From: Anthracocystis setariae
Taxonomy: Eukaryota > Basidiomycota > Ustilaginomycetes > Ustilaginales > Ustilaginaceae
Assembly (NCBI GenBank): GCA_928724745.1
Contig: CAKMXJ010000028.1
Coordinates: 1 to 64,000 of the forward strand
Length of the DNA: 64,000 bases
Direction of reading: 5' to 3'
The notes below the pieces were generated by a model. It was not told the DNA's origin. It saw only the letters and a program-made list of their open reading frames with translations, and did no database searches. Below are positions 36,911 through 64,000 of the stretch, in pieces. A program made the translations under genes and the position numbers. The first letter of the stretch is position 1, and each line of letters opens with the position of its first letter.

Positions 36911-36997
36911 TGTGGCTGGATGATCGATGTAGGATTCCAAGTGAGACGCAACAAGTGAAAATCTAATTACAGGAAATTATCTGGGCCGAGAGCCACA
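36911..36997 (-). repeat. 3' LTR of element B (87 bp)
   Basis: Ends TGTGGCT and AGCCACA; matches 51594-51680 with two mismatches. On the minus strand it is preceded by the purine-rich tract at 36,998-37,010. Confidence 0.85.
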
Positions 36998-37114
36998 CTC
37001 CACCTTCCCTAAATTGAACTTAGTGCTTTTTTTAAATAAATTTGGCTCCGGGCAACTTGTGTTCTGGCAAGTTTGGCAAGAAACTTCCATCATCTCACTC
37101 AAAACTTGTCAAAA

Positions 37115-37603
37115 ATGGCCTTAAAGACCACTCAATTGAAAGCTACAGACGCCCCCAGCACAACTGTGCCCGCTGTTTTGCCCTGTTATCGCTGTAAGCA
37201 GAAAAACGCCACCTGTGAACTTGCTGATGGCTCCAAGAAGTGCAAGGGCTGCCTGCCTGCCAACTCTAGGTGCAATGCCAACGGCATAGTGCCTGGCTTT
37301 CAAGAGCCAGAGTTGAAGGAGATCTACCTAGAGCAACTTCTCAAGAAAAATCCAACTTTCCACTGGGTGGCTGAAAATTTGGAACAACCTGCCAAATGCA
37401 CCAAATGGGATCCACCTAGCACCAAAGTCAAGAACCCCAAGCCAAAGGGTCCCCAAATGCCCACTAATTGAGCCAAAGCTGAAAAGCTACTTGCCAAATA
37501 CAAGGTAAAGATCCCAAAGATGGCCAAAGAGCTCCGAGTAGCCCGACTGGCCTACAACTACCAGCAAAACCTCTATGGTCTGACCAAGTATCCTGAATTG
37601 TAA
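37115..37603 (+). pseudogene. Element B accessory gene: Zn2Cys6-like protein, antisense to pol
   Basis: Lies between the end of pol and the 3' LTR of element B, on the strand opposite to gag-pol. From the ATG at 37,115 the product has six cysteines at 24, 27, 34, 43, 46 and 53, i.e. CX2CX6CX8CX2CX6C, the exact spacing of a fungal Zn2Cys6 DNA-binding domain. KEIYLEQLLKKNPTFHW follows at 68-84. A TGA at 37,469 interrupts the frame; the same frame then continues with a Lys-rich stretch AKAEKLLAKYKVKIPK to a TAA at 37,601. A TATA-like TTTAAATAAAT lies about 75 bp upstream of the ATG. The pol stop of B is 53 bp beyond, so the two genes converge. Likely a nuclear DNA- or RNA-binding protein of the element, now broken by one nonsense change. 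Confidence 0.65.
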
Positions 37604-37916: not shown

Positions 37917-38277
37917 TGTTATGCTCCTGGGGTCTTAGAACCTCGGAACGTGGCGGTGCGTCTGTGTCGAGGCCAGGGGCGTGGTACCGGGTGTTGCTCC
38001 CGGGATCGTTGCCAAGATAGCGGGGCGGGCGAGCGGGAGATCGGGAGAAGGTCTGATATTTCCACCTACTAGAGTGAGTAAGCTAAAATACAATCGACGT
38101 CCTAACGTGAGTGTGATGGGATCAGGGTGTGGGGTTATGTGGCCCTCCCGGATACCCCCTCCGGGAGATGCCGCAGTCTCCCCCGATCACCGATCCGGGA
38201 CCTCATCGGGGGAACTACCCCCGCCCATGTTAATACTAAAACCAAACACTAACTCCCCCGATATCCCAATCATAACA
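37917..38277 (-). repeat. 3' LTR of element A
   Basis: 361 bp, TGTTATG...CATAACA ends. It differs from the 5' LTR at the sites corresponding to 45,820 and 46,021. ATGAT precedes it on the + strand. Confidence 0.95.
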
Positions 38278-38294
38278 TTACCCCCCCCCCCGGG
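38278..38294 (-). promoter_or_regulatory. Polypurine tract of element A
   Basis: On the minus strand CCCGGGGGGGGGGGTAA runs into the 3' LTR. Element C has the same G run plus TAA at the same place (56,579-56,588), supporting its role as second-strand primer site. Confidence 0.7.
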
Positions 38295-38476
38295 AAGGCC
38301 GACGTCCCCGTGGCCTACTTATTACTCCCGGGCCTTAAGTTCCACCCGGGAGGCTCCCGGACCCACCACGCGTGGCCCGCGCTGAGAACAAAGGGACCAG
38401 GAACGACGCTTTGTGTGCCTGGCGGGGCGTGCGCGGCGGAGCGTGCGCAGCGGGCTGAGCGCTAACTTCTCTTTTG

Positions 38477-38484
38477 TATATAAG
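38477..38484 (+). promoter_or_regulatory. TATA box of the element A accessory gene
   Basis: TATATAAG lies 82-89 bp before the ATG at 38,566 and is followed by a pyrimidine-rich leader. It shows the antisense gene has its own promoter inside the element. Confidence 0.6.
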
Positions 38485-38565
38485 ACTCGCCTCGCTCCCG
38501 TTCCTGGTTCCTTCCCTTCCCCCACAACCTCGTTCCTCAACGCCCGGAACACTATTTCCTTCAAG

Positions 38566-40487
38566 ATGCCTGGTGAGTACCGTCCGGGACCCGGGAGACG
38601 GGTTATGATCATGTGCTGACGTTCTCTTTTTTTCCTTTTACCATAACAGCAACAAGATCTTCCACCCGGCGAGGTGGCTCCGGCGCTGGGGTGTCGGGAG
38701 GCTCTGCCCCCGCCCCCGGCAACAACAATGACGTGGACGAGTCCCGGGGCGTGAGTGCCCCGGAGGTAGTGGACGAGTCCCGGGGCGTGAGTGCCCCGGA
38801 GGGTGTGGACGAGTCGGGCCGCTATGTGGCTCAAGAGGGAGACGTAGTCTCCCTGTATGTGGACGAGTCCCCCGTGCTCCCGCGCGGGGAAGCTGGCCCC
38901 GATTTGGTCCCGGGTGTCCAGGGCGTGGACGAGTCCCCGGCACAGGCTTTGGCCCCGTGTCGGGAAGATGGGCAGCAGGCTCCCGGGCTCCCGGGTCCAG
39001 AAGCCAGCACCGCGACGGCCCCTCCCAGTGGGGCTGTCCCCGGGCCCTCGAGCGTGGCCGCCCCGACTCCCGGGGCTGGCGTAACGATCGGGGATCCCGG
39101 GAGGCTGGCAGAACTGGTCCGGGAGGTCAGAGCACGGGGTACCCCTCCCGTCTCGGAGGGGTATGGGCACTGTTGGTCTTGCGCCAACAGTAAGAAAAAA
39201 CCCCACCCCCAGTGCTCCCTGGGGTACGCGCATCGGGACGCCAGGGGTCCGGAGGACCCCCGGGACGGCCAGCATGCCGCGTGCGAGAGGTGCCATGTCG
39301 CGGGGTATCCCTGCGACTGGCAAGGGCGCGTCCCGGACATCACGGGACGTCAGGAGGGCGGCTTCCTGATGGAAGCCTATCTTGTCCTCCGGGCCCGGGG
39401 TGTCCGTCCTAACCCCGGGATGCCCTTTACGTCCTTCTCGGCGGCGGACCTGCCGGGGTATCTGGCGGCCGAGTACGCCCCCGCGCGTGCTCGGTACGAG
39501 GCTCGACGCCAGGCCAAGGTGGGGACTCGTCCCTGGGCCCCCGAGTCTCCCGCTGGGCCGTCCTCCGGTGGAGGCACCAATGTCCCGGGCTCCCGGCCTC
39601 CCCGGGGTCAACGGGGGTGGAAGCAAACCACCCTTGTCCCCGACGCTCCCCTGGCCCTGCGCCAGGTTTGTCCCTTCGACGCTCCGGGGGACCAACATAT
39701 GGCCGGGGCCCGGGAGGCAGCATCCCACGCGGCGGGAGTCATCGCCGCGTTGGTGCAGGTCCTTCGCCGGACCGCTGCCGTGGGAGCGGAGAGGCGTCTC
39801 GAGTGGTCTTCTCGGGACGAGAACATCCTCCGCTACCTGGAGGGTGTGAATGGTGCTTTCGAGAGCATCACCCGGGAGCTTGGCGTCCCGCCTCCTCCCC
39901 CGCCCCCAATGGTGCCCGCGCCTGCCCCTGCCCCTGTCCCGGTTCCCGCCCCCGCCCCTGCTCGCGTGGCGGCTCCCCCGCGGCCCAATGCTGAAGCTGG
40001 GCCGTCCCGACGCTGGGGTTCCCCTCCCCCGGGATACGCTCCGGCCACCCCGGAGTTGGCGCGTGCCAAGAGGCAGCGTCCCGGGACGCCCACGCGGGAG
40101 CGAGCTCCCCGGGCCAGTGGCTCTCGGCCACAGACGGGAGGAAAGCGCCCTCCTCAGACGGGGGGTAAGCGCCTCCCGGGGAGCTTCCAAACGGGCGGGA
40201 AGCGTCTCCCGGTGGGTGGACTCCGCCCTCCCTCTCCCGAGCCGGAGAGGCGTGCCCAGCGCCGCCGTGCTCAGGCGGTGGTGCGGGACATGCGGGCCCC
40301 GATCCGTGCCCGTCGTCGGGGCAGCTCCCGGGAAGACTCCCGGGGCGAGTCCCGCGGCGAGGAGTCCTCGGGGGCGGAGGACCAGAGCCGGGAGTCCGGG
40401 GAGGGCTCTGACGAGGATGTGGTGATGGTGGACTTGGACGTATACGAGTCCCGTCCTCGCACCCCTCCGCGTCGGGGGCGTCGATAG
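38566..40487 (+). CDS. Element A accessory gene: twin Cys-cluster protein, antisense to pol
   Basis: Two exons, 38566-38572 and 38650-40487; the consensus donor GTGAGT and acceptor ATAACAG give a 77-base intron and a 614-residue product starting MPATRSSTRRGG. Residues 30-95 contain five VDES repeats. Two cysteine groups follow: Cys177-x2-Cys180-x10-Cys191 and Cys214-x2-Cys217-x6-Cys224, then DWQGR and FLMEAYLVLRARGVRPNP. The same block (CDWxGR…LMEAYL…GxRPNP) is found in the accessory gene of element C, and B has a related but shorter version. The C-terminal half is Pro-rich, then Arg/Ser-rich with an acidic DEDVVMVDLD segment before a basic end. The stop is 334 bp from the pol stop; the genes converge. 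A nucleic-acid-binding regulator or nuclear-targeting factor is the best guess. The 734-residue ORF on the other strand is a GC-driven shadow. Confidence 0.7.
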
Positions 40488-40820
40488 GCCCCCGGGAGCC
40501 ATGTTCTGTCGTGTGTCCGGGGTCATTAGGATCCCGGGAATAAGATTGTGTTTACCCCGAGTTCCCGCGTGTTGAGTGTGTATGTGTGTGTATGAGAGTG
40601 AGAGTGTGGGTGTGTCGGAGAGCCCTCTGTCCCCTGGGCGCGGTGGCCGAGTCGGAAAAGCAACCGGGACGGGCTGAATCCGGAGGGGCGCGTGGCTCTT
40701 GACTGCTATCCCGCCTCCCGGATCGGGGCAATCCGTCGCCCGTTCCCTTGCCGATGCTTCCCAAGGTGGCCGCGCTGGTCGCTCCCGCGCTGGCGTCCGG
40801 GGGGCGGGGAAAGCCGGGAG

Positions 40821-43800
40821 TCAGCAGTCCCGGGAGTTAACCTGGCTCCCGGGCCGACGCTGATGGAAATCCTGGAGCAGTTCTTGGCTGTTTTCCAGGT
40901 GAATCGCGGGCTCCCAGGTAGGTTGGGTGTACCCCGCCCACTTCACCCGGTACTGTAGCCCCCGACGTGTCTCCCGGGAAGCTAGGATATCTTCCACTTC
41001 GAAATCTTGTCGGTCGTCCTCCAGGCGCCGGGACGTCGGGGCGTGCTCGGAGGGCCGGGTGTCTGGGGAGTGCGGTTCCAGGAGGCTGACGTGAAAGACC
41101 GGGTGGATTTTCCAGGCAGGCGGGAGGTCCAACTTGTAAGCCCGGGAGCCTACCGCCTGGAGGACACGAAACGGTCCCGCTAGCGGGTTCCCTAACTTCC
41201 GGGACGGTCGATCTTGTTGGAGATGCCGAGTGCGGAGTAGCACCATATCACCCCCGGAAAAAGACCGGTCCATCCTGGAACGGTTGGCATAATGTGACAT
41301 AAGACTGGCAGCGTGGTCGATGTTGACTTGACAGTGCTTGAGGAGCTTCCGGAAGGACGAGTCGGAGGGCGGAGCACCATCCGGGGAGAGGGCCGGGGAG
41401 CCGGGGAGGGTTCGCGGAGTGAAGCCAAATAGGGGTAGGGTGGCCGGGAGTCCGGTAGTAGCTGACACCCTATTGTTAAGCGTAAGTTGGGCGTACGGCA
41501 GCCATGCAGCCCAGTCATCTTGCTGGTAGTTAACATAGAATCGGAGGAAAACTTCTAAGTTCTGGTTGATACGCTCAGTTTGGCCGTCGGTTTGCGGATG
41601 ATAGGCGGTTGAGAGGGCCGGGGTGGTCCCGAGGGCGGTTAATATGTCTTTCCACAAGGATGCTATGAAAGTGCGCCCCCGGTCCGAGACGATGGCGTCC
41701 GGGAGTCCAAAATAGGCGAAGACGCGGGAGAACAGTAGGTGGGCGAGGTCTTTAGCTGTATCGGACTTCCGAGCCGGGAGGAAAAGTGAGTATTTGGTGA
41801 GGCGATCGACGACAACAAGGACGGAGTCGAATGTGAGGCCACCGGCCCGGGAAGGCGGGAGACCTTCGATATGGTCCATGGTGATGGTCCCGAACGGCCG
41901 GGACGGGGCCTCGAGCGGGAGTAGCAGTCCATAAGGCTTATGCCGGGGTGCCTTAGCGCGCCTACAGGCTCCGCAGGTCCGGACGTACTCCGTAACATCA
42001 TGCTTAAGGGTCGGCCAGGAATGGTGACGGCGGACTAGTTCGATGGTCGCGGCCACTCCCGGGTGTCCCGCCGTTGGGTGGTCGTGATAACGTTCTAGGA
42101 TGTGTTTAACTTCGGTGGGGGACACGGGACTGGTCGGGAGAGGGTCGGGGGCCGGGACCACGTCAGATATTCGGTGCGCAGCCGGGGCCCGCTGTTCCGA
42201 CAGCCCGGACTCTTGGAACAGGTAGGGGGGTAGGAGGACCGCGACGTTAGCGGGGTCATGCTGGTGATTGGTAGTGGTGGTGTTGGGATGACCATCGGAG
42301 CGCCGGGACAGAGCGTCCGGGCGGGTTGCCTGGGTCCCGGGTCGGTACGTGATGGTGAACGTGAACTCCCCGAGAGCCATGCTCCACCGGGCCTGCCGCC
42401 TGTTAAGTTGCCGCTTTGTTTGGAAATATTGGAGGGCCTGGTGGTCGGTGAGTACCTCAAACGGCTGCTGGAGCCCGTGGAGATAATGTCTCCATTCCTG
42501 CAACGCGTCCACGATGGCTAGGAGCTCCTTATCGTGTATTTCGTAGTTGCGCTCTGCGGGCTGCATTTTCCGCGACCAATAGGCTACCGGGTGGAGCCGG
42601 TGTGTCGAGGGCCGGGGTACGGCCTCGGGGTCCGTCCCCGGGATGGCGTACCACTGCGAGAGTACGGCGGCCACGACGTAATCACTAGCATCTGTCTCGA
42701 TCACTGTGAGCCGGGAGGGGTCAAAGTGTTGTAGGATTGGGGCGGTAGTGAAGGCTTCTTTGAGACGGGTGAAAGCCTCCCGCTCCTGAGGCTCCAAGTT
42801 GATCTTACCGGCAGCCTTGTTCTTGAGCCGATCGGTGAGCGGGGCTGCCACCCGGGAGTAGTGCCGGATAAAATGACGGTAGAAATTAGCAAATCCTAGG
42901 AAAACCTGGATGTCCCGGATTGTGACCGGTTCTGGCCAGGACGTCACCGCGTCCACCTTGCCGGGATCCATACTGATCCCCCCGGGACTGACCTGGTACC
43001 CGAGGAATTCGACGGACGAGGTCCTGAAGTCGCATTTTTCCGGGGCACAGTACAACTTGTGGTCCCGGAGGCGCCTCAACACCTCCCGGACGTGAGAGGT
43101 GTGTTCCGCGGGGTCGGCCGAGAAAATGAGGATGTCATCCAAATACACTATCACAGTGACGTCCAAGAGGTCGTGGAGGACGTGGTTCATAAGACGCTGG
43201 AAAGTAGACGGGGCGTTACATAGCCCAAAGGGCATAACTAAGTACTCATAGCTCCCGTACCTGGTCCGGAAGGCTGTTTTCCATTCGTCGCCCTCCGCGA
43301 TGCGAACAAGATTGTAGGCCCCCTTAAGATCCAATTTCGTGTAAATCTTAGCCCGGGAGAGGCAGTCCAGGTGCTCGGAGATCAGGGGAATCGGGTACTT
43401 GTCTTTGACGGTGATGCTGTTGAGGGCCCGGTAGTCGACGCAAAGGCGGAGTTTGCCATCTTTCTTCGGGACGAAGATGATAGGGGCGGCTGCCGGGCTC
43501 TTGGACGGCCGGATGAACCCTATCTCCAGCATCTTATCCAGATAGGTCTTTAGTTCCTCCATTTCTCTCCCGGAGAGGGAGTACAGCGCGCCGTGCGGGA
43601 TCTGAGCTCCGGGGAGGAGGTTAATATGGTGGTCGTGGGGCCGGCGAGGCGGAAGCACGTCGGCGTTGGCCTCATCGAACACGTCCGAAAAGTCCCGGTA
43701 CTCTTCCGGAAGGCCTGGGGCCCGGGATGGCTCCAAGGAGCTGGGGTGGATAGCGAAACAGTTCTCCCCCGGGACGGGATCCTGTCCATTGGTAAGCAGC

Positions 43801-44525
43801 GGGGGGCCGGTAGGTTGAACCGGGGTGGTGGCATAACCCCCTCCTCCCGGGAGCGGGAAGTGCATGGTTTGGGTTTGATAATTGAGTACCGGTTCGGTCT
43901 TCTCAATCCAATCCATTCCTAGGATGATATCATAATCGGAGATGCGGGGTGCGACGTAGAATTGATGACTCGGGGTAACCGGGACGCCCGCGAGGCTGAC
44001 CGATGCCCGGATAGTGTGGGTGATATCCTCTGAGCGGGAATCGAAGGTTGCTGTACGCACCGGGGCCCGGAGGGCCTCCGGGACGCCCACCTCCCGATCC
44101 AGCATGGCCCTGTCCACAAAAGAAGCGGTGGCGCCCCCGTCGATTAGGGCCCGGGCACGGCACCCGGCCAGCGTGACCCAGCACTCGTACACCGGGATGC
44201 TGGGGTGTCGGTGTACCCGGATGGTGTCCCCGCTGATCACCGGCTCGGCGGGGGGGATGAGGGCCGCTACATGGCTCCTGAGATCCACGAGTCCCGGGTC
44301 CTGACGAAGTTGGGCGATGTTGGCCCTCACCGGGAGAGTCGGAGGGTGGTCGGTGGACTCGGGGTCCCACTCCGGATCATAGGAAAGGACGGAGCGGTCA
44401 TCGGGTAGGTCATCCTCGCCGTTGGTAGGGGTGGCTTCGTCCTCACCGGACCACCGGGTCTCCGGGACGTCCGGGACCAGGGGTTGGACCAGAAGCTCGC
44501 CGTTGGCGGGGTCCAGGATGGCCAC
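40821..44525 (-). CDS. Element A Pol with chromodomain
   Basis: 1234 residues from the first Met of the open frame; the frame is open further upstream (to at least 44,788) and there encodes the Gag zinc knuckle CYGCGGPHAVRDC, so Pol is probably made by frameshifting from gag. Domains: aspartic protease with ALIDGGATASFV (active Asp near 128; DGG instead of the usual DSG/DTG), reverse transcriptase with VPKKDGKLR and YLDD (near 461), RNase H with TDASDY (near 612) and HDKELLAI, integrase with an HHCC finger and a D-D-E triad at TMDHIEG (near 883), SDRGRTF (near 945) and QTERINQ (near 984), then a C-terminal chromodomain (1170-1225: DFEVEDILASR, YRVKWAGY, TWEP). The chromodomain places it among chromoviruses and should guide integration to marked chromatin. 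No disabling change was found. Confidence 0.92.
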   Translation of the reverse strand: MAILDPANGELLVQPLVPDVPETRWSGEDEATPTNGEDDLPDDRSVLSYDPEWDPESTDHPPTLPVRANIAQLRQDPGLVDLRSHVAALIPPAEPVISGDTIRVHRHPSIPVYECWVTLAGCRARALIDGGATASFVDRAMLDREVGVPEALRAPVRTATFDSRSEDITHTIRASVSLAGVPVTPSHQFYVAPRISDYDIILGMDWIEKTEPVLNYQTQTMHFPLPGGGGYATTPVQPTGPPLLTNGQDPVPGENCFAIHPSSLEPSRAPGLPEEYRDFSDVFDEANADVLPPRRPHDHHINLLPGAQIPHGALYSLSGREMEELKTYLDKMLEIGFIRPSKSPAAAPIIFVPKKDGKLRLCVDYRALNSITVKDKYPIPLISEHLDCLSRAKIYTKLDLKGAYNLVRIAEGDEWKTAFRTRYGSYEYLVMPFGLCNAPSTFQRLMNHVLHDLLDVTVIVYLDDILIFSADPAEHTSHVREVLRRLRDHKLYCAPEKCDFRTSSVEFLGYQVSPGGISMDPGKVDAVTSWPEPVTIRDIQVFLGFANFYRHFIRHYSRVAAPLTDRLKNKAAGKINLEPQEREAFTRLKEAFTTAPILQHFDPSRLTVIETDASDYVVAAVLSQWYAIPGTDPEAVPRPSTHRLHPVAYWSRKMQPAERNYEIHDKELLAIVDALQEWRHYLHGLQQPFEVLTDHQALQYFQTKRQLNRRQARWSMALGEFTFTITYRPGTQATRPDALSRRSDGHPNTTTTNHQHDPANVAVLLPPYLFQESGLSEQRAPAAHRISDVVPAPDPLPTSPVSPTEVKHILERYHDHPTAGHPGVAATIELVRRHHSWPTLKHDVTEYVRTCGACRRAKAPRHKPYGLLLPLEAPSRPFGTITMDHIEGLPPSRAGGLTFDSVLVVVDRLTKYSLFLPARKSDTAKDLAHLLFSRVFAYFGLPDAIVSDRGRTFIASLWKDILTALGTTPALSTAYHPQTDGQTERINQNLEVFLRFYVNYQQDDWAAWLPYAQLTLNNRVSATTGLPATLPLFGFTPRTLPGSPALSPDGAPPSDSSFRKLLKHCQVNIDHAASLMSHYANRSRMDRSFSGGDMVLLRTRHLQQDRPSRKLGNPLAGPFRVLQAVGSRAYKLDLPPAWKIHPVFHVSLLEPHSPDTRPSEHAPTSRRLEDDRQDFEVEDILASRETRRGLQYRVKWAGYTQPTWEPAIHLENSQELLQDFHQRRPGSQVNSRDC

Positions 44526-45706
44526 GTTGGCCCGGAGGGGCCGAGTCTGGGCGGCCTTGGGGCAGTCCCGGACTGCGTGAGGGCCCCCGCACCCGTAGCA
44601 GAGGTTGTTTTCCCGACGGTACTTGCGGACCTCGTCGGGAAGCTCCCGGCTGGCCAGCCCGGGACGGGGCGGATCACCCCGCTTGTTGGGGGCCTCGCGA
44701 CGGGGTACCGTCGGTTGGGTGAGCGACCGCCCCGAAGTTCGGGGCGGCGTTCCGGGCGACCCGGGGTGTCCGAGTGACCCGGGGTCACCAAGCCGATTTC
44801 GTACATTCGCTGCTCGGTTCGGATAGCGGTGTCAATGTACTCGTGCAGGTCGTAGGTCTCCACGTGGAGGAGCTTCTGCCGGAGGCTCTCCCGGAGGCTG
44901 AGCTGGAAAGTCGTCAGCAATTGCTGATTATCGGTAGCGTTAGCCTTAGTGGCTAGGGCCAAGAACTCGGCAGCGTGAGCGCTGACGCTTCCCGATTGAC
45001 GCAGCCGCTGGAGCTTGACCCGGGCGGTATGTCCCGGGTTAGGATCCCCGTAGGTGCGGCGGAGGTCGGTGCAGAACGTGTCCCACTTGTGGAACAGGTT
45101 GATTTCCGGGCGGGCCTGGCGCAGGTTGCGGAGCCGCTCCCGGGGTACACCCGAGATATGGGCTAGGGCCCATAAGACACGGCGGGGGTCGGAGGGGAAG
45201 CGTGCCGGGTTAAGATCGAAATGGAGGGTGCATTGTTCGATGAAAGCCTCCAGCTCGTCGCGCTTACCGTCCCAGGAGGGGGCGGCAACGCTAACTTCCG
45301 GGGTCTTGACCCGGGAAGAATAGTCCTCCGTAAGGTCCCAGTTGGGAGCCACGACGGGAGCTCCCGGGGGCACCGGCTGGGGATTGGACCCGCGCTTGCC
45401 CATAAGGCGAGTAGCGCGGGCGTACCTTTCCTCCGAGGTCTCGCGTTCCGGAGAGGGGTCTCCCAGGTGCTCCATGGGCGGGAGGCCCGGTTCTGCCGGG
45501 GTCGGGACGGCGGGGTCGGGGGCTCGGCCGCTGTTGAGCAGCCGGATCTGGTCGGCCAATCCTCCGACCAGGGCGGTTAGGCTCTGCACGGCGGCGACTA
45601 GCCCCTGGACGGGGTCGCCTCCTGAATCGGGACTTTCGGGGGTAGGGCTGCCCGAACTCGTAACTGAGTCCGGGGAGCCGGGACGATGCTGGCTACGGGT
45701 TTGCAT
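44327..45706 (-). CDS. Element A Gag
   Basis: Zero-frame ORF of 459 codons starting MQTRSQHRPG 48 bases inside the 5' LTR. Residues 130-310 form the capsid-like region: APSWDGKRDELEAFIEQC, RRVLWALAHISG, then LRRTYGDPNPGHTA and LLTTFQLSLRE. These align with the N-terminal part of the element C polyprotein. After about residue 330 (DTPGRPERR) the zero frame runs on without similarity, whereas the minus-one frame continues into the zinc knuckle and protease. The real Gag C-terminus is therefore uncertain: either a frameshift joins Gag to Pol or the last 130 codons are a read-on tail. Confidence 0.85.
   Translation of the reverse strand: MQTRSQHRPGSPDSVTSSGSPTPESPDSGGDPVQGLVAAVQSLTALVGGLADQIRLLNSGRAPDPAVPTPAEPGLPPMEHLGDPSPERETSEERYARATRLMGKRGSNPQPVPPGAPVVAPNWDLTEDYSSRVKTPEVSVAAPSWDGKRDELEAFIEQCTLHFDLNPARFPSDPRRVLWALAHISGVPRERLRNLRQARPEINLFHKWDTFCTDLRRTYGDPNPGHTARVKLQRLRQSGSVSAHAAEFLALATKANATDNQQLLTTFQLSLRESLRQKLLHVETYDLHEYIDTAIRTEQRMYEIGLVTPGHSDTPGRPERRPELRGGRSPNRRYPVARPPTSGVIRPVPGWPAGSFPTRSASTVGKTTSATGAGALTQSGTAPRPPRLGPSGPTWPSWTPPTASFWSNPWSRTSRRPGGPVRTKPPLPTARMTYPMTAPSFPMIRSGTPSPPTTLRLSR
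44727..44765 (-). promoter_or_regulatory. Candidate minus-one frameshift site of element A
   Basis: On the minus strand the gag-frame heptamer C-CCG-GGT (44765-44759) has the X-XXY-YYZ form. It is followed after 11 bases by a perfect 8 bp hairpin, CCGCCCCG / CGGGGCGG with an AACTT loop (44747-44727). The pol frame is minus one relative to gag, as needed. A second copy of the heptamer lies at 44783-44777. Y=G is not an efficient slippery base and CCCGGG words are common in this element, so chance is possible. Confidence 0.35.
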
Positions 45707-45742
45707 GGTAGCTGGAGTCTCCGCGTTGATGGCAACGGGGAG

Positions 45743-45753: not shown

Positions 45754-46114
45754 TGTTATGCTCCTGGGGTCTTAGAACCTCGGAACGTGGCGGTGCGTCT
45801 GTGTCGAGGCCAGGGGCGTGGTACTGGGTGTTGCTCCCGGGATCGTTGCCAAGATAGCGGGGCGGGCGAGCGGGAGATCGGGAGAAGGTCTGATATTTCC
45901 ACCTACTAGAGTGAGTAAGCTAAAATACAATCGACGTCCTAACGTGAGTGTGATGGGATCAGGGTGTGGGGTTATGTGGCCCTCCCGGATACCCCCTCCG
46001 GGAGATGCCGCAGTCTCCCCCAATCACCGATCCGGGACCTCATCGGGGGAACTACCCCCGCCCATGTTAATACTAAAACCAAACACTAACTCCCCCGATA
46101 TCCCAATCATAACA
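45754..46114 (-). repeat. 5' LTR of element A
   Basis: 361 bp, two differences from 37917-38277. Followed on the + strand by the second ATGAT copy (46115-46119). Confidence 0.95.
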
Positions 46115-50476: not shown

Positions 50477-51558
50477 TTAGCTACTTGCTATAGTATCTTT
50501 GGCAGACGATAGACTCATTGTACCTGGCTGCCTACCGTCAAGGTCGCCCCTTGACGCAGTCGACTTCCAACAAGAAGAACCAGTGCTCTGCGCAATTGCC
50601 GTTGGCCTTGACAACTGATTGTTTTGATTCCAACCCTGTTCCTGGTTTGGCTGTTGCCTGCGTTTGGCTTGGTTTTCCCGCATTTGGGTGTCAATCTGAT
50701 CCGCAAGTCTGACATACCCATTGAAGTTGGAAGGCTTGTTGGCCAAATAAGACAATGCCTGCTTAAGAGATGCTGAAAGTCCACAATTGAACTTTGCCAG
50801 GATTTCAGATTCCTGAATTGGAGGATGGATGCGTTTGGCCAGCTTTGCTAATTCTGTAGCATACTGGTTAACAGTTTGGCTACCTTGGGTGCACTGATCG
50901 TACTCCCAACGGTGCCTATTGTCCGCATTGTAGTCCTCAAACTTGGAGTTCATCCAATTAAGGAACTGATTGCAGTCTAAATTCTGGAAGAGGTTGGTTT
51001 GGACCGCTTCATTGCTGGTCTCAGCCCAGGTCCGTTCCAAACGGTTGCGTTTGGCAGTCCAAGCCTCCTTAGCATCACCCAAGAGGTAGATGCTGCAAGG
51101 AGGATCTTCTCAGACTCCGATCGGGACCTTCCCCTGAGAGAATAGTATCCAATGTTGTCTCAAATCTCCATGATCCAAGTCTTGACCGTATCATTGTCCC
51201 GAGAACCCAAGAACACCAAAGGTTTATTGATAGGCACACTTCCATGTGCTTCAATGTCCCAAACGGGTCCCATAGGTACAGCCGTCTGTGCCGTAAGTGC
51301 CTGAAGTCTAGCAACCTCTTGTTGAAGCTCCATAATCATGGCTGTCATTGTTGATAAGTCCATATTGGCTGCCAAGGGAGCAGGAGGGACCAGTCCAGGC
51401 CCAAGGTTGACCGTATCACCTGGCATATCCTGCCGAGTCTCCTGAGGAGCATGCATTGAGTCCGCCACTCCTCCGAGCCTTGCCAAATTGTTGACAGAAT
51501 TAACATCCATCTTGAATGATTGAGTGTATACTTTCCGTATTGTTCTGTAGTGGTCCAA
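50477..51558 (-). pseudogene. Element B Gag, N-terminal and capsid parts
   Basis: Two minus-strand frames. The first (51558-51160) has a coiled-coil segment MELQQEVARLQALTAQ and ends at PLVFLGSRDNDTVKTWI. The second (51082-50477) continues the capsid part: LERTWAETSNEAVQTNLFQ, RWEYDQCTQGSQTVNQYATE, LAKRIHPPIQESEILAKFN. A frame break lies at about 51,085-51,160. The order matches Ty3-type Gag. The first ATG is taken from the open frame and may not be the natural start. Confidence 0.75.
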
Positions 51559-51593: not shown

Positions 51594-51680
51594 TGTGGCT
51601 GGATGATTGATGTAGGATTCCAAGTGAGACGCAACGAGTGAAAATCTAATTACAGGAAATTATCTGGGCCGAGAGCCACA
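51594..51680 (-). repeat. 5' LTR of element B (87 bp)
   Basis: Matches 36911-36997. On the minus strand it is followed by AT and then TGGTAGCTTCTGAAAAC, a plausible tRNA-primed binding site. Confidence 0.85.
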
Positions 51681-52112
51681 CACATTCCGTGGCCTCTGTC
51701 TCACCGCACACTCATTGCTGCGCTCCTCATGTATATAGTCAAGGTCATTGCCGGAGATCTCTCTCCTCCTTGGAAGCCACTGCCTTGACTATACACACGT
51801 TGCATACAAGCTGTGATTGTGTGACAATGCAACTGCATCAGTTATCAATTGAACTGTTGGATCGCAGCAATCAGCATTTAGTCTGTTTCAGAATCCGGCC
51901 AAAAATCCGAATTTTTTCAAAAACTCAAGTTTTTTTGTGAACTACAAAATGCAAAACTCGAAGTCCAAACATTGTGTGAAAGAATAGACGTGTGAAACTA
52001 CAGCCTTGCAGCAAAGCCAGGATAAATAGTTCATTCTGACTTTTGAGCAGGACTTACAGAAGTAGGCATTGGGCGATCAACCCCAACGTTGGGTTTTAAC
52101 AAACAGCAGGTT
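51681..52112. other. Flank of element B, no gene
   Basis: Contains an inverted repeat, GTATATAGTCAAGG near 51,731 and CCTTGACTATACAC near 51,784. Nothing else recognised. Confidence 0.4.
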
Positions 52113-56135: not shown

Positions 56136-56141
56136 ATCCCC

Positions 56142-56578
56142 TGTTAAGCGCCAAGGGTCTGACAACCTCCTGACTGTTTGGCGTGGCACGCGGTGTGCGA
56201 GGCTTGGGGCTTGAGGGCGCGTGGCGGGAGTGGTGGCCACGAGAGTCACCGAGCACGATCCTGAGGTTAACGGTTCTACCGTTGGGTCTGATATTCGCTA
56301 TTACTCAAGGTAACTAAGAATACATTCGACGAGCGGACGACAGGGAGGTGGCGCGCAGCTACTCACTTATAAAGCATCACGCGTGCCGCGCGGCGCGCAA
56401 CGGAACGTAGGCCGCGCGCGGTCCTGACTCGCGAGGTGGACCTTGTCATGTCACGCGTGGCACGCCCCCTCCTGCACGGCGTACCGCGCGGCGCGCCCCA
56501 GTGGCCACACATCGCGCGGCACGCACCTGGCGGCACTCTCGTGGCGCGCTGGCTGGGGCCCCCCATCCAGCCGTAACA
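56142..56578 (-). repeat. 3' LTR of element C
   Basis: About 437 bp with TGTTA and TAACA ends. The internal segment CTAAGAATACATTCGACG corresponds to CTAAAATACAATCGACG in A's LTR. A + strand TTATAAAG at 56,368 could serve the accessory gene. Left border inferred from the inverted ends. Confidence 0.7.
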
Positions 56579-56854: not shown

Positions 56855-58717
56855 ATGACCACCAATAGTAAGTATGAACACGTTTGGGGTACGGCACCTG
56901 CGGCGAGGCGTTGACTGACGCGTGGCTCTGAATTTCCGGTTCCTGTGTCTGGCCAGCCGACACGCCTTCGAACGAGAAGACGCGCGCTGAAGCTGAGGCC
57001 GCGTCCACCCTTCGTGCAATCTTGGCCGTGGTCCCCGATCCTCGGGCAAGCAGCGATACCGCCGTCCCGCCCCCGGTGGTGGCTGTGGCCGGGCCCCCTC
57101 CAGCTGCACCCTCTCCAACCGACAAGGCCGGTAAGTAGCCCCTTCCCTTGGCGCTTTGATCCGGTGTACGTACTGACTCCGATCTTCCCGGTGGGGATGC
57201 GGTGTCTGACAGCACCCGTAACGCCGAGCACTCCCGTGATTGAGATCCCTTCTTCGCCGCCGCCCCAGGTTTGCGATGGTGCACCTTCCCCCAAAGTGCG
57301 CGATCCCCCTTCCCCCGAGGCTCGCGACCGAGCTCCCTCCCCCATCGACGATCGCGCCGACCAGAGTCAATTCCGCTATCAAGTGTGGGAGATCCTGCCG
57401 TGGGGCGAGCGGAGCTGCCCTATCGTGGACTCCCTGATGCGGGAGCGCAAAGACCAGCCCATCGGCGACGTCCCCTTCGTGGTACGTCTCATCAAGGCCG
57501 CTCTGGTGCTCAGTGATCCCGATTGCGAGGAATTCATGGCTCCCTGCTATGCATGCGAGCATAAGGGCTGCGACGCCGCGGCATGCCACGTGGATCCCGA
57601 GCGTGGCGCCGTGACGGGCAAGCGCGACGCTGGCGCCAGGATTCCCGAAGAGATCGCCCGAGCCTTCGAGGGCATGCCGACGCCTTGCAGCGCGTGCGGC
57701 ACGAAACGTAAGTGCGACTGGCGCGGCAGGATCCCGTGGCTGGGGAATCGGCTCGAGGGCCCGTGGCTGATGGAAGCCTACCTCTGGATGCGCGTCCTGG
57801 GCCACCGTCCTAACCCCGCCCTGACCCCGTCGATGGTGCCGGTCGGCTCCCTCCCGCCCTACATGGAGACTGAGCGCGCCGCCGTCGTGCAGCGCTACGC
57901 CAGGCGCCGTTGGCCGCGTACCAGTCGCCGGACTAGGGCCGACCGAAGCGATGACAACGAGAGCAGTGAGAGCGATGGCGAATCCGTGGAGGAGGAGCCC
58001 GAGCCCGCTACCCCCAGCCCCCGCGCGACCCGTGCTACCCGAGCCCGGGCTGCCGACCGTCCCCGTCCCCTGAGCTCGCCTAAGGCTCCTCGTCCCCGCC
58101 GCGCTGCCGCGCGTAAACCCCTCAGCGCCGCCCCGGGGGTGAGCGCTACCATCCGCGCGACGCCGCGTAGTCGTGACGAGGAAGCTGGGGGGTCGTCGTC
58201 CCTGGGTTCCAATCCGCCGGCGCCATCGGCTTCTTACCGGAAACAGGCGGTGCATCTCCAGCGCAGCACGGAGGCCATCGAGCGCGCGCTCGACGATCTC
58301 AAGGTTACGATTCGGCAGTGCGCCGCCGCTGGCCTGCTGGAGGGTATGGACGTGCAGTCTTCCACCATGAAGCGGCACCTGATGATGCTGGAGTCTACGC
58401 CCGCCGCCCTGCGAACGACGCTGCACGAGCTTGTAGACTACTGGCGGGTGAGCGGCCCCGCGTATCTGATTGCCTCGGACTCGTCGGACTCGGACAGCGC
58501 GTCCCATGTTGCCGCTGCTCGCGAGCGTGTTGGGCGCCTTCTGGATCGCGCGCCACCGACTGGCGTCCCGCACCCGGCTGCTGACTCTCCCGTCGCTGCG
58601 GTACCCGCGCGCCGCGCGTCGCCCTCGTCCCCCTTGGCGGCGGAGGCTCCTCGCACGCCGAAGCGTCCGCGCCGGCAAGCGCTTCTTGATGGTGGAGAGG
58701 ACGCGGCTCCGGCCTGA
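56855..58717 (+). CDS. Element C accessory gene: twin Cys-cluster protein, antisense to pol
   Basis: Three exons: 56855-56867, 56957-57130 and 57213-58717. Both donors are GTAAGT; introns are 89 and 82 bases. The spliced frame gives 563 residues starting MTTNTDTPSNEKTRAEA. A Pro-rich N-terminal part precedes QFRYQVWEILPWGERSCP. Cysteines at 174, 177, 182 and 187 form the first cluster and Cys221-x2-Cys224-x5-Cys230 the second, followed by DWRGR and WLMEAYLWMRVLGHRPNP, the same block as in element A. The C-terminal half is basic with acidic Ser patches (near 300-315) and a helical region around 400-440. The stop is 433 bp from the pol stop; genes converge. The frame is intact, so the protein is probably still made. 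The 828-residue minus-strand ORF here is a shadow. Confidence 0.68.
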
Positions 58718-59149: not shown

Positions 59150-62100
59150 TCAGGCCTGACTCCGTCCCGTGGGCGCTCCTGGGTGCGACCTGTGGAATTC
59201 GTCCACCAGCTCTTGGCTATTGGCGAGGTGATGCGCTGGCTCCCATGTGGGCTCATCATAACCGGCCCACTTGACCTGGTACTCGAGGCCCCGTCTGCTC
59301 GTTCGTGCCTCCAGCAGTCGTTCCACCTCAAAGTCTTGGCGGTCGTCTTGGAGGTTGGTGGCTTGTGGCGCGTGCTCCGTGGGGCGCGCGCCCGCTGGGT
59401 ATGGCTCGAGCAAGCTCACATGGAATACCGGGTGAACGCGGGAGCCTGCTGGCAGGTCCAACCTGTACGCGCGCTGGCCCACGGCCTCTAGAACCGTAAA
59501 TGGTCCGGCGAGGGGGTTGGACAGCTTCTTGGACGGTCTGTCCTGGCGCAGGTGTCTGGTGCGCAGCAGTACTTGGTCACCCCCGGTGTAAGACCGATCC
59601 GTCCTGGATCGGTTTGCGAGGCTCGCCATGGCGCGCGCGGCACGCGCGATGTTGTCCTGGCAGGACGCGATGAGCACCTGCAGGGAAGCCGGGGAGGGTG
59701 GCGCACCATCGGGGGCGAGCGCGGGGGAACCCGGGAGCGTTTTGGGCGTAAAACCAAAAAGGGGAAGGGTGGATGGAAGGCCGGTAGCGCCAGCGGGGCG
59801 GTTGTTGATGGCAAGCTGCGCGTGCGGGAGCCACGCGGCCCAGTCATCCTGCTGGTAGTTGACGTAGAGGCGCAAAAAGACCTCCAGGGTTTGATTGGTA
59901 CGCTCGGTTTGGCCGTCAGTTTGAGGGTGATAGGCCGTGGATAGTGCCGGGCGGACCTGGAGTTGCTGTAGCACCGCTCGCCAGAGGGAGGCGATGAAAG
60001 TGCGCCCGCGGTCGGAGACAATCTGGTCAGGCAACCCAAAATAACAGAACACACTTGTAAAGAGCATGCGTGCGAGGTCGGGAACGGTGTCGGATTGCCG
60101 CGCTGGGATAAAAATCACAAACTTGGTGAGGCGGTCTACGACTACAAGGATGGAATCGAAGAGTGTGCCGCCCACGCGCGAGCGCGGGAGGCCCTCGATG
60201 TGATCCATGGAGATGGACCCGAACGGACGGTCGGGCGCGCCCAACGGGAGTAGCAGCCCGTAAGGTTTATGGCGCGGGGCTTTGGCGCGCTTGCAGGCAG
60301 AGCAGGTGGCGACGTAGGTGACAACATCTTGCGCGAGGGTGGGCCAGCTGTGGTGGCGGCGGACGAGCGCGGTGGTAGTAGCCACGCCGGGGTGCCCCGC
60401 GGTGGGGTGGTCATGATAGCGGGACAGAATGGCGGCGATGTCAGCCGCGCTGGAAGGGGTGGCCGGAAAGGCGGTCGCCGGGAGGAGAGCCGCGCGGCGC
60501 GCGGCCGGGGCCGGGAAGTTGACGGGGTCGGCGCCGGTTGTCTCGGGGTGGACGAACAGGGAGGGCGGCAAGAGGGTAGCTACATTAGCGGGGTCGCCAT
60601 GGCGTTGGGCGTCCGCGAGGTTTGGGTGGCCATCGGATCGGCGTGACAGAGCGTCCGGCCGCGCGGCCTCTGTACCCGGGCGGTAGGTGATGGAGAATGC
60701 GAACTCCGCCAGGGCGATGCCCCAACGGGCCTGACGGCGATTGAGCTGGCGCTTGGTTTGGAAGTACTGGAGAGCTTGGTGGTCCGTGAGGACATCAAAC
60801 GGTGCGTGCAGCCCGTGTAAGTAGTGGCGCCACGCTTGAAGGGAGTCGACGATGGCCAGGAGCTCCTTATCGTGGATCTCGTAGTTGCGCTCGGCAGGCT
60901 GCATCTTCCGTGACCAATACGCCACTGGGTGGAGACGGTGCGTGCTCGGGCGCGGCGCTGTTGTAGTGGCGGGGTTGATTGGGTACCATTGGGACAGGAC
61001 GGCCGCCACGACGTAGTCACTGGCGTCGGTTTCCACTACTGTGGGCAGCGCTGGGTCAAAATGTTGCAGGATAGGAGCCGTGGTGAATGCGCGCTTGAGG
61101 GTCTCGAATGCGGCCAGCTCGGAGGGCTCTAAGGAGATGCGCCCGCTTGCTTTGCCCTTGAGGCGGTCTGTGAGCGGGCGAGCCACGCGCGAATAGTGTT
61201 TGATGAATCGTCGGTAGAAGTTGGCAAAGCCAAGGAATACCTGGATGTCACGAATGGTCGTGGGTGCGGGCCAGGTAGTTACGGCCTCGACCTTCGCCGG
61301 GTCCATGGAGATACCGGCCGGGCTGACTCGGTAGCCCAGGAACTCCACCGAGGTGACCCCAAATTCGCACTTGTCGGCAGCGCAATATAGCTGGTTATGG
61401 CGCAAACGGCGGAGCACCTCGCGCACGTGTGTGTCGTGCTCGGCGGGATCGCGGGAGAACACGAGGATGTCGTCCAGGTACACCACCACGGACACGTCGA
61501 GCAGGTCGTGCAGGATGTGGTTCATTAAGCGCTGGAACGTAGATGGCGCGTTGCACAACCCGAATGGCATTACCATGTATTCGAAACTACCGTAGCGCGT
61601 GCGGAATGCCGTTTTCCATTCGTGCCCCTCCTTGATACGGAGGAGGTTGTACGCCCCCTTCAGGTCGAGCTTGGTGAAGACGCGCGCTTGCGCGAGGCAG
61701 TCCAAGTGTTCGGCAATGAGGGGTATGGGGTACTTGTCTTTGATGGTCACGCTGTTGAGCGCGCGGTAGTCGACGCACGGTCGGAGGCGACCGTCTTTCT
61801 TAGGTACGAAGATGATAGGGGCCGCGGCGGGGCTCTGCGATTCCCGAATGAACCCAATAGCAAGCATCTTGTCAATGTACTTCTTGAGCTCATCGAGCTC
61901 GCGTGCGGACAGGGAGTATAGTGGCCCGTGTGGGATCTTGGCTCCCGGCAGGAGGTTGATCTCGTGGTCCTGGGGGCGCGGGCGCGGCAGGATGTCGGCG
62001 TTGGCCTCATTGAACACCTCCGCAAACTCCTGGTACGCAGCGGGGATGTCCTTAGTCGATGGTGCGGCGGCGAGCTCGTCCGCGTGCGCCTGGACAAGGA

Positions 62101-63985
62101 CGCAGTGTTCGGCGGCATTGTCGGTAAACGGCAGCGGGGGGATGGCCCCGGCCGGGGGCGTCGCGGGCTCATGCTCGCCTTGCCCGGGCAGGGGAAATTG
62201 CATGGCGCGAGCCTCGTAGTCGAGGACGGGGCGCGTGGCCTCGATCCAGTCCAAGCCTAAGATGACGTCGTAGCTCGATATGCGCGGGGCCACAAAGAAG
62301 CGGTGGTGGGGGGCGACAGTGAGGCCCGCCAGCCCCACGGCTGCCCTGCAGGTATGAGTGATGGGCTCCGAGGCTGCGTCGAACGTCGCTGTCTTAACCG
62401 GAGTGGCCAACCCGTGCAGGTCGATGCCCGCGCCCTCGAGGAGATCCTTCGCCACGAAGGACGCGGTAGCGCCGCCGTCGATGAGAGCGCGCGCCCGCAG
62501 GTGGTCAATGGTGACCCAGCACTCGTAGGCCGGAATGCTGGGGTGACGACTCACACGGATGTGGTCGCCCCGAACAGATGGCTCCGCGATGGGTTCCAGT
62601 GCGGCGACATGCGTGCGGAGTGGGAACCAGTCGGGGTGAGTCAGTAGTTGTGCCACGGCCGCGCGCGGAGGGAAAAGGGCGTCTTCAAAACCCAGGGGAT
62701 CGAGGGTGGGGTCGTAGACCGCTTCGTCGTAGGCATCCCTTTCGGCCGGGGGGTCGCACTCGGTAGGCGCGTGGTCTGAAGAGGGGTCTTCTCCTTCGGG
62801 CGGCAGGAGGTAGTTGCCTGTGGTGGGCTCAACCGTAATGACATTAGCGCGCAGCGCGCGCTCCTGTGTGGCCTGTGGACAATCGCGCGCGAGGTGCTTC
62901 TCGCCACAGGTGTAGCACAGGTTGTTCTCGCGCCGGTAGCGGCGTGTGTCCTCCGTGAGCTTCTGCAAAGCCGTGTTGGCGCGGGCCGGAGCATGGAAAG
63001 TTGGGCGCGCGGCGGCCGGGGCGGCGGCGGGGCGGGCGGCGTTCAGCCCACCAGTCGGGGCTCCCGTCGGGGTCGTACCGGGCTCCGGTCGGGGGCGCTC
63101 GTCATTGCGGCCCGTCGCGCGGCCCGGAATGTGGGCGGTTCCGGCTGAGTCGAGGCCGGTTTCGAGCATCTGCTGCTCGGTGCGTACAGCAGCGTTGATG
63201 TACTCCTGCAGGTCGTGGGTCTGCACATGTAGGAGGTGACGCCGGAACGTCTCGCGGAGTCCCAGCTGGAACGTAGTGAGCAGCTGCTGCTTGTCGGTAG
63301 CGTTGGCTCGCGTGGCCAGCGCCTGAAACTCGGCAGCGAAGCGGCTGACGCTCCCGGTTTGACGCAGCTTCTGCAGCTGCATCCTGGCCGTATGTCCTGG
63401 GTGAGGATCGCCGTACGTGCGGCGTAGGGACCCGCAGTAGCGCGGCCAGTCGTGGAAGATCGGGTCGTGGGGGCTCGCCTGGCGCATGTTGCGCAGGTGG
63501 TCGCGAGGCGCGCCACCCACGTGTGCCAGGGCCCAGAGGACCCGGCGATTGTCTGTGGCAAAGCGTGCCGGGTTGAGGTCGAAGTGCAGCTCGCACTGCT
63601 CAATGTAGGCCTCCAGCTCTTCACGCTTACCGTCCCAGTCGGGGGCAGCGATGCGGAGTTCGGGAGCTTTGTCGAGGCTCGCGTCCAGGGGAGCGATCCA
63701 CGGCACCAGAGGGGGGGCCGGGAGGGAGTACCCAGGCTGCGGCTCGCGGGCGTGGTGGGGGTCCTGCTCCATCCGGCGGGTGGCTCGCTCGTAGCGCTGC
63801 TCGGATGTCTCGCGATCCGTCGCCGGGTTGGGAGCCTCTCTGGGGGGCTCCGCTTCGGCGGCCCTGGGCGAGCGCTGGGAGGGGGTAGCCGCGGGGGGTG
63901 GTTGGCCTCTTTGCTCGCGGCGCAGCGCGCGCATCTCCAGGACCAATTCCTGCAGGACGGCCATTTGCTCCTGGAGCACCGCCAT
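59150..63985 (-). CDS. Element C Gag-Pol polyprotein with chromodomain
   Basis: A single open frame of at least 1611 codons; the frame remains open to the window edge, so the true start may lie to the right. Order: a Met/Leu/Gln/Glu coiled-coil start, capsid region (APDWDGKREELEAYIEQC near 115), zinc knuckle CYTCGEKHLARDC (near 355; CX2CX3HX4C, one residue shorter than usual), protease with ALIDGGATASFV (near 500), reverse transcriptase with YLDD (near 835), RNase H with TDASDY (near 988), integrase with SMDHIEG, SDRGRTF and QTERTNQ (near 1260, 1321 and 1360) and a chromodomain (1550-1600: DFEVERLLEAR, YQVKWAGY, TWEP). All catalytic residues are present, so the element may be active. It is the nearest relative of A here, but A needs a frameshift between Gag and Pol and C does not. 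Confidence 0.93.
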   Translation of the reverse strand: MAVLQEQMAVLQELVLEMRALRREQRGQPPPAATPSQRSPRAAEAEPPREAPNPATDRETSEQRYERATRRMEQDPHHAREPQPGYSLPAPPLVPWIAPLDASLDKAPELRIAAPDWDGKREELEAYIEQCELHFDLNPARFATDNRRVLWALAHVGGAPRDHLRNMRQASPHDPIFHDWPRYCGSLRRTYGDPHPGHTARMQLQKLRQTGSVSRFAAEFQALATRANATDKQQLLTTFQLGLRETFRRHLLHVQTHDLQEYINAAVRTEQQMLETGLDSAGTAHIPGRATGRNDERPRPEPGTTPTGAPTGGLNAARPAAAPAAARPTFHAPARANTALQKLTEDTRRYRRENNLCYTCGEKHLARDCPQATQERALRANVITVEPTTGNYLLPPEGEDPSSDHAPTECDPPAERDAYDEAVYDPTLDPLGFEDALFPPRAAVAQLLTHPDWFPLRTHVAALEPIAEPSVRGDHIRVSRHPSIPAYECWVTIDHLRARALIDGGATASFVAKDLLEGAGIDLHGLATPVKTATFDAASEPITHTCRAAVGLAGLTVAPHHRFFVAPRISSYDVILGLDWIEATRPVLDYEARAMQFPLPGQGEHEPATPPAGAIPPLPFTDNAAEHCVLVQAHADELAAAPSTKDIPAAYQEFAEVFNEANADILPRPRPQDHEINLLPGAKIPHGPLYSLSARELDELKKYIDKMLAIGFIRESQSPAAAPIIFVPKKDGRLRPCVDYRALNSVTIKDKYPIPLIAEHLDCLAQARVFTKLDLKGAYNLLRIKEGHEWKTAFRTRYGSFEYMVMPFGLCNAPSTFQRLMNHILHDLLDVSVVVYLDDILVFSRDPAEHDTHVREVLRRLRHNQLYCAADKCEFGVTSVEFLGYRVSPAGISMDPAKVEAVTTWPAPTTIRDIQVFLGFANFYRRFIKHYSRVARPLTDRLKGKASGRISLEPSELAAFETLKRAFTTAPILQHFDPALPTVVETDASDYVVAAVLSQWYPINPATTTAPRPSTHRLHPVAYWSRKMQPAERNYEIHDKELLAIVDSLQAWRHYLHGLHAPFDVLTDHQALQYFQTKRQLNRRQARWGIALAEFAFSITYRPGTEAARPDALSRRSDGHPNLADAQRHGDPANVATLLPPSLFVHPETTGADPVNFPAPAARRAALLPATAFPATPSSAADIAAILSRYHDHPTAGHPGVATTTALVRRHHSWPTLAQDVVTYVATCSACKRAKAPRHKPYGLLLPLGAPDRPFGSISMDHIEGLPRSRVGGTLFDSILVVVDRLTKFVIFIPARQSDTVPDLARMLFTSVFCYFGLPDQIVSDRGRTFIASLWRAVLQQLQVRPALSTAYHPQTDGQTERTNQTLEVFLRLYVNYQQDDWAAWLPHAQLAINNRPAGATGLPSTLPLFGFTPKTLPGSPALAPDGAPPSPASLQVLIASCQDNIARAARAMASLANRSRTDRSYTGGDQVLLRTRHLRQDRPSKKLSNPLAGPFTVLEAVGQRAYRLDLPAGSRVHPVFHVSLLEPYPAGARPTEHAPQATNLQDDRQDFEVERLLEARTSRRGLEYQVKWAGYDEPTWEPAHHLANSQELVDEFHRSHPGAPTGRSQA

Positions 63986-64000
63986 CAGCGGGACGGCGGC

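What the first reader, a model, noticed from the sequence alone, without database searches (positions are those of the whole stretch)
36911..64000. Three different Ty3 elements share an opposite-strand Zn-cluster gene at the same place
Elements A, B and C each have, between pol and the 3' LTR, a gene on the other strand that starts just inside the LTR and converges on pol. Two are spliced (which would be invisible in genomic RNA of the opposite sense), two have TATA-like boxes, and all encode twin cysteine clusters followed by a short helical segment. In B the spacing is exactly Zn2Cys6. B is only distantly related to A and C, so the module is old or was swapped. Extra genes are known in plant elements, but I know of no described fungal element with an antisense zinc-cluster gene.
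Basis: partly seen in the sequence, partly recalled or inferred. Interest (0 to 1): 0.9.

Follow-up and report, generated by a model that had tools for sequence, protein, structure and literature searches.

The report
Antisense zinc-cluster gene in fungal retrotransposons
Several related retrotransposons in this fungal genome carry, on the opposite strand, a spliced extra gene that selection has kept intact and that probably makes a zinc-cluster nuclear protein, much as some plant elements and one known fungal element carry an antisense gene of unknown function.

Summary
In families A and C a spliced gene lies antisense between pol and the 3' LTR; a third family, D, has one too. In this genome the gene follows 67 of 86 A/C/D reverse transcriptases, on the opposite strand at near-constant distance, never on the same strand. 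Full-length open copies, lower bounds: A 19, C 10, D exon 2 23. dN/dS is 0.22 (A) and 0.17 (C); wrong frames give 1.4-2.1, except the one sharing wobble positions (0.33, 0.25). Splice sites hold in 23 of 23 A and 13 of 13 C copies examined. The long pol-strand ORF is a by-product. B is decayed, with one other copy found; its 118-aa ORF fits Zn2Cys6 spacing and its tail resembles A/C (permutation p 0.002, post hoc). Antisense genes at this place are already described in plants and in fungal Boty (brtn): a new variant, not a new kind. Zinc and DNA binding are inferred from motifs; Pfam and structure prediction gave no support. Likeliest role: self-encoded nuclear regulator.

The parts
37917..38277 (-). 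element A, 3' LTR
   Evidence: 99.4% identical to 45754-46114; TSD ATGAT
45754..46114 (-). element A, 5' LTR
44327..45706 (-). element A gag
   Evidence: PF03732 E 5.5e-8
40821..44105 (-). element A pol: RT, RNase H, integrase, Tf2-type SH3, chromodomain (chromovirus)
38477..38484 (+). TATATAAG, putative promoter of antisense gene A
   Evidence: kept in 18 of 23 A copies examined, CATATAAG in 3, neither in 2
38566..38572 (+). antisense gene A, exon 1
   Evidence: ATG and donor kept in 23 of 23 copies examined
38573..38649 (+). antisense gene A, intron (GT...AG)
   Evidence: 75-82 nt, donor and acceptor kept in 23 of 23 copies examined
38650..40487 (+). antisense gene A, exon 2 (protein 614 aa in all)
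   Evidence: 19 full-length copies without a stop; dN/dS 0.219
39171..39314 (+). twin cysteine cluster of A, CX2CX10C-X22-CX2CX6C
   Evidence: six Cys aligned between A and C; codons 180-240 have the lowest dN/dS, 0.065
39366..39521 (+). segment LMEAYL..R.RG.RPNP and following stretch of A, probably helical
   Evidence: shared with C; helices in a low-confidence model
36911..36998 (-). element B, terminal repeat (3' end)
   Evidence: 98% identical to 51594-51681
51594..51681 (-). element B, terminal repeat (5' end)
37115..37471 (+). antisense ORF B, 118 aa, Zn2Cys6 spacing at 37184-37273
   Evidence: one relative C23:97503, 45% identity
46024..47946 (-). element B pol piece (RNase H, integrase)
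50477..50953 (-). element B gag piece
   Evidence: PF03732 22.4 bits, just under the cut-off 24.1
56142..56578 (-). element C, 3' LTR (ends read from TGTTA...TAACA)
   Evidence: 5' LTR not in the window
59150..63985 (-). element C gag-pol with chromodomain
56855..56867 (+). antisense gene C, exon 1
56957..57130 (+). antisense gene C, exon 2
   Evidence: splice sites of both introns kept in 13 of 13 aligned copies
57213..58717 (+). antisense gene C, exon 3 (protein 563 aa in all); cysteine cluster 57545-57715
   Evidence: 10 full-length copies without a stop; dN/dS 0.172

Best explanation
Chromodomain Ty3 elements of this fungus carry a third gene, antisense between pol and the 3' LTR. Shown by sequence: the gene exists in at least three multi-copy families (A, C, D), is protein-coding and has been kept by purifying selection while the elements multiplied; its splice signals are kept on the antisense strand. 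Inferred: it has its own promoter (TATA box in family A); its introns are removed only from the antisense transcript, so they survive retrotransposition of the sense RNA; the product is a nuclear protein with a Zn2Cys6-like zinc cluster and a following helical segment, bound to DNA, probably the element's own LTR or leader, where it tunes transcription or silencing of the element, as HTLV HBZ (recalled) or plant VANC proteins do in their own elements.
For: Strand and place: 67 of 86 A/C/D RT matches have the gene on the opposite strand, 2.5-3.4 kb beyond RT, 0 on the same strand (these are 86 of the 138 RT matches, the other 52 being B, more distant families and duplicate pieces). Coding: dN/dS 0.219 over 152 of 171 A pairs, against 0.151 for the pol end of the same 19 copies; four of five wrong frames give 1.42-2.15, one 0.33. 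C: 0.172 over 48 of 55 pairs. By age in A: 0.58 for the 12 pairs with dS under 0.02, 0.22 for the 144 pairs over 0.15, as expected if selection acts while copies spread. Neutral simulation for 4 A pairs: 5-7 stops and 68-78% aa identity expected; 0 stops and 84-88% seen. D exon 2: 92-98% aa identity at 86-96% DNA identity, neutral mean 75-92%. Introns: A 23/23, C 13/13; D exons 68-75 nt apart in 25 loci. Six cysteines aligned between A and C; D spliced reads CX2CX6C-X19-CX2CX6C, matched by 0 of 100,000 shuffles.
Against: No Pfam match over its cut-off (B to Zn_clus 8.1 bits against 21; C to SOG2 9.7 against 26.9). A and C lack the exact Zn2Cys6 spacing. Structure models are poor (mean pLDDT 59.9 and 50.7) and Foldseek gave two matches, best E 7.8. 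No relative was scored for A/C in the 5.8-billion-protein set, though relatives of the pol RT/RNase H part at 72-79% identity are there. One wrong frame (pol strand, shared wobble positions) gives 0.33 (A) and 0.25 (C), the latter not far from 0.17. 19 of 86 RT copies lack a gene in reach, and 26 of 93 antisense places have no RT in reach. Antisense and pol dS agree only moderately (rho 0.33 in A, 0.62 in C). D splice letters were seen in one copy only. No transcript, zinc or DNA-binding data.
Confidence: 0.55

Rival explanations
1. The antisense gene is a real protein gene but not a DNA-binding regulator: the cysteines form a structural or RNA-binding zinc fold and the protein acts in the particle, in RNA export or in integration.
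For: No Pfam zinc-cluster match over cut-off; spacing differs in A and C; long proline-rich and basic stretches fit many roles.
Against: B and D fit the Zn2Cys6 spacing; antisense gene products in plants are reported nuclear (Grande) or predicted DNA-binding (TRP28) (PMC7264820, PMC11963269, passages seen).
Confidence: 0.28
2. The function lies in the antisense RNA (double-stranded RNA with the 3' end of the sense RNA, feeding RNA silencing); the protein is incidental.
For: The gene converges on pol, and such a role is discussed for plant antisense ORFs (PMC7264820 passage).
Against: Selection is on amino acids: dN/dS 0.17-0.22 with frame and strand controls; reading frame kept across the splice.
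Confidence: 0.06
3. The long pol-strand ORF in the same region (38322-40526, 56579-59065) is the real gene, an env-like third ORF, and the antisense frame is its shadow.
For: The complementary register is open in 19 of 19 A copies and the ORFs run up to the LTR.
Against: dN/dS of that register is 1.42 (A) and 1.61 (C); low-complexity product; the splice signals belong to the other strand.
Confidence: 0.02
4. Unrelated captured host genes in some families (independent captures), alike only in cysteine spacing.
For: A/C against D not related by hhalign (probability 1.3%); D tail permutation p 0.045 only.
Against: A and C are clearly homologous, B tail p 0.002 (post hoc), same place and orientation in all; the genome searches with A and C proteins listed members of these two families only.
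Confidence: 0.25

Closest known systems
Boty-like elements of Botrytis cinerea / Sclerotinia, antisense gene brtn
   Same: fungal chromodomain Ty3 element (gag-pol with CHROMO, PMC4227169 passage) with an antisense gene between pol and 3' LTR (PMC7264820 section 5)
   Different: different fungal division; I could not read the original paper (not held), so cysteine cluster, introns and homology are untested
Plant Retand / Grande / RIRE2 antisense ORFs (aORF-3R, TRP28 domain PF04195)
   Different: Retand is a non-chromovirus plant lineage; no TRP28 match here
Fungal Zn2Cys6 (GAL4-type) transcription factors, PF00172
   Same: B and D fit the cysteine spacing
   Different: no Pfam match over cut-off; A and C deviate; none of the 78 PF00172 places of this genome coincides with an antisense place (compared by eye)
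VANC anti-silencing proteins of Arabidopsis VANDAL transposons; HTLV HBZ
   Same: element-encoded nuclear regulator acting on its own element; HBZ is antisense (recalled)
   Different: no homology claimed; analogy of role only (VANC: abstract beginnings in a listing; HBZ recalled)

Membership tests
Ty3 chromovirus | RT, RNase H, integrase and C-terminal chromodomain in pol, LTRs | tested here: met
   A and C: RVT_1, RT_RNaseH, rve, PF00385; LTRs of A. No chromodomain match in the B pol piece scanned
[quoted passage not shown]
   67 of 86 RT copies in A/C/D, 0 same-strand
antisense additional ORF between pol and 3' LTR (aORF-3R) | conserved as a protein | tested here: met
   dN/dS 0.219 and 0.172 with controls
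antisense additional ORF between pol and 3' LTR (aORF-3R) | antisense transcription | not testable with these tools
   no expression data; TATA box and splice signals only
Zn2Cys6 (PF00172) | profile match over the curated cut-off | tested here: not met
   A, C, D none; B 8.1 bits against 21
Zn2Cys6 (PF00172) | CX2CX6CX5-24CX2CX6-9C (consensus recalled) | tested here: inconclusive
   met by B and by D after splicing, not exactly by A or C
Boty brtn family | sequence homology to BRTN | not testable with these tools
   paper not held; no BRTN sequence in hand
Retand TRP28 (PF04195) | TRP28 profile match | tested here: not met
   not among the matches of the Pfam scans

The most novel reading that the evidence does not exclude
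Smut-type chromoviruses have evolved a self-encoded antisense transcription factor: a spliced zinc-cluster protein made from the element's own internal promoter that binds the LTR and controls the element's expression or silencing, a fungal counterpart of retroviral antisense regulators, old enough to be shared by families whose RTs are only about half identical.
Probability: 0.35. Interest if true: 0.85.

Novelty: new variant of a known kind. Interest (0 to 1): 0.62.

Why it matters
Antisense genes of LTR elements have been known for years without a function. Here several families in one small genome keep one, with dozens of open copies, conserved introns that point to the strand of expression, and a conserved cysteine core, so function becomes directly testable (antisense RNA-seq, zinc and DNA binding on the LTR). 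It would also show that introns can persist in a retroelement if they face the other way.

Tried and rejected
Sense env-like ORF: rejected by dN/dS. Host origin: genome searches with A and C proteins listed only members of these two families, though 14 of 42 A places and 4 of 22 C places had no RT in reach. Relatives elsewhere: none scored for A/C (where only the 7988 candidates sharing most words were scored, 2531 candidates, C core only); B and D were not searched. Control with the RT/RNase H part of A pol (120 of 7962 listed): unnamed JGI proteins at 78-79%, then Melanopsichium pennsylvanicum 73-75% and Pseudozyma flocculosa 72%; Melanopsichium is in Ustilaginales, so the host is probably a smut fungus (inference). 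hhalign A1 against D and B: probability 1.3% and 2.0%, P 0.039 and 0.024, though the B alignment puts all six cysteines and the YL segment in register; the permutation test of the tail was made after seeing that, so its p 0.002 is optimistic. B against its relative: dN 0.51, dS 1.42 over 82 codons (ratio 0.36), five control frames 0.43-1.11: inconclusive. Structure prediction and Foldseek: uninformative. More distant Ty3 families of the genome (RT 28-40% identity) were not read for antisense genes. Rough numbers in notebook entry 2 (about 33 D copies and the like) are replaced by those given here.
Full report
What is there. Three Ty3-type elements lie on the minus strand in the right half of the window. 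Element A (37917-46114) has LTRs 99.4% identical, a 5-bp target duplication, a gag and a pol with RT, RNase H, integrase, SH3 and chromodomain. It is inserted into element B, whose 88-bp terminal repeats lie at 36911 and 51594 and whose gag and pol are in pieces. Element C has a 3' LTR at 56142-56578 and a long gag-pol with chromodomain; its 5' LTR is not in the window. On the plus strand, between each pol and 3' LTR, is a gene: A 614 aa with one intron, C 563 aa with two, B 118 aa with none.

Is it coding? The region is GC-rich and also holds a long ORF on the pol strand, so an open frame alone proves little. Copies from the same genome decide it. For A, 19 loci match exon 2 over all 611 codons without a stop (79 matches in all, 72 of 79 candidates scored). 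Over 152 of 171 pairs with dS above 0.05, pooled dN/dS is 0.219; the pol end of the same copies gives 0.151 (158 of 171 pairs). Reading the same alignment in other frames gives 1.42, 0.33 and 2.15 on the pol strand and 1.92 and 1.89 on the antisense strand. The 0.33 frame I take to be the one whose third positions coincide with those of the antisense frame; the mirror control in pol behaves the same way (0.235 against 0.151). The register of the pol-strand ORF, open in 19 of 19 copies, is the one with 1.42: it is open because of codon usage (inference), not selection. For C, 11 of the 15 longest copies (10 without a stop, one with a TGA) give 0.172 over 48 of 55 pairs, controls 1.61, 0.25 and 2.00; its pol gives a median of 0.091 and a pooled 0.222 over 27 of 36 pairs from 9 copies. 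In A the window of codons 180-240, which holds four of the six cysteines, has 0.065; the least constrained window, codons 60-120, has 0.77. The 12 pairs with dS below 0.02 have 0.58, the 144 pairs above 0.15 have 0.22: new copies decay, and those that multiply keep the gene.

Introns and promoter. In the 23 of 30 A loci (fetched with the A probe) whose match begins at residue 1 of exon 2, the start codon, a GT[A/G]AGT donor and an AG acceptor in frame are all kept, with introns of 75-82 nt; TATATAAG is kept in 18, CATATAAG in 3, and neither is found in 2. In 13 of the 15 longest C loci (two left out) both introns keep GT...AG. The intron bodies vary. These signals are on the antisense strand, so the sense RNA that is reverse transcribed would not be spliced there; that is an inference from orientation.

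A further family. A RT search of the genome gave 138 matches. I assigned 39 to A, 18 to C and 29 to a family D (64-66% RT identity to A); the other 52 are B, more distant Ty3 families and duplicate pieces and were left out. One D copy was read (L071). Beyond its pol, antisense, is a two-exon gene of 506 aa whose two exons each give one CX2CX6C half. D exon 1 is found full length without a stop in 14 loci (42 matches in all) and exon 2 in 23 (27 matches). In 25 exon-1 loci given to a script, exon 2 follows after 68-75 nt in 25; four further fragmentary exon-1 places were left out. DNA and protein identities against neutral simulation show amino-acid constraint. Across A, C and D, 28 of 39, 18 of 18 and 21 of 29 RTs have the gene 3' on the opposite strand at 2.5-3.4 kb; none has it on the same strand. 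Of the 11 A RT matches without one in reach, 6 have an opposite-strand piece 10-14 kb off (5 different pieces), as nested insertions would give; the other 5, and the 8 in D, are unexplained. Conversely 14 of 42 A, 4 of 22 C and 8 of 29 D antisense places have no RT in reach.

How the genes relate. A and C are homologous (31% over 153 aa, E 1e-16), with six cysteines and the segment LMEAYL..R..G.RPNP in register. B shows no significant pairwise or profile match, but the profile alignment sets its six cysteines and a YL segment in register, and a permutation test with cysteines fixed gives 40 of 20,000 (post hoc). D is not significantly similar by profile and marginal by permutation (903 of 20,000). 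RT identities to A are about 80% (C), 65% (D) and 46-52% (B). The simplest reading is one old, fast-evolving gene; independent capture in D or B is not excluded, and the D product being less like A/C than that of B is against strict co-inheritance.

What it does. Selection, basic stretches of nuclear-signal type (for example PKRPRRQ near the C terminus of C, read by eye), the cysteine clusters and the analogy with other antisense genes point to a nuclear zinc-cluster protein that regulates its own element. Only the first of these is a test. Pfam does not recognise the domain, models are of low confidence, and the fold search is empty of significant matches.

What is known. A review read in part (PMC7264820: section 5; [quoted passage not shown] function unknown. 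PMC11963269 (passages) reports antisense TRP28 ORFs, predicted DNA-binding, in 97% of Retand clusters. PMC8365987, PMC4227169 and PMC5987419 (passages) mention brtn; those passages name no zinc cluster as part of it. The original brtn paper is not held. Searches showed no title or abstract beginning about an antisense zinc-cluster gene in a fungal LTR element; some lists were capped (20 of 25, 20 of 87, 20 of 29, 12 of 20), and the library lacks most subscription journals.

Noticed in passing
window 1-10965: Tandem copies of a unit of about 4.24 kb at the contig end (three copies of most stretches, many 99-100% alike, some 66-97%), with an OTU-like cysteine protease domain (PF02338) in the 753-aa ORF at 7862-10123; looks subtelomeric.
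   Followed up: partly
window 53756-54104: A solo LTR-like copy, 91% identical over its first 197 aligned positions to the A LTR, then diverging.
   Followed up: no
L070 1146-1495: A solo A-type LTR with a GCTTG duplication (read by eye) is inserted in the middle of the zinc-cluster ORF of the only other B-family copy found.
   Followed up: partly
window 38322-40526 and 56579-59065: Long pol-strand ORFs (734 and 828 aa) opposite the antisense genes; the register is open over exon 2 in 19 of 19 A copies yet shows no sign of selection.
   Followed up: yes
G000, A and C families: dS of the antisense gene and of pol agree only moderately between copies (rho 0.33 in A, 0.62 in C), which suggests recombination between copies.
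   Followed up: no
window 49879-50476: B gag is interrupted by about 600 bp of other sequence, possibly a further insertion (read by eye).
   Followed up: no
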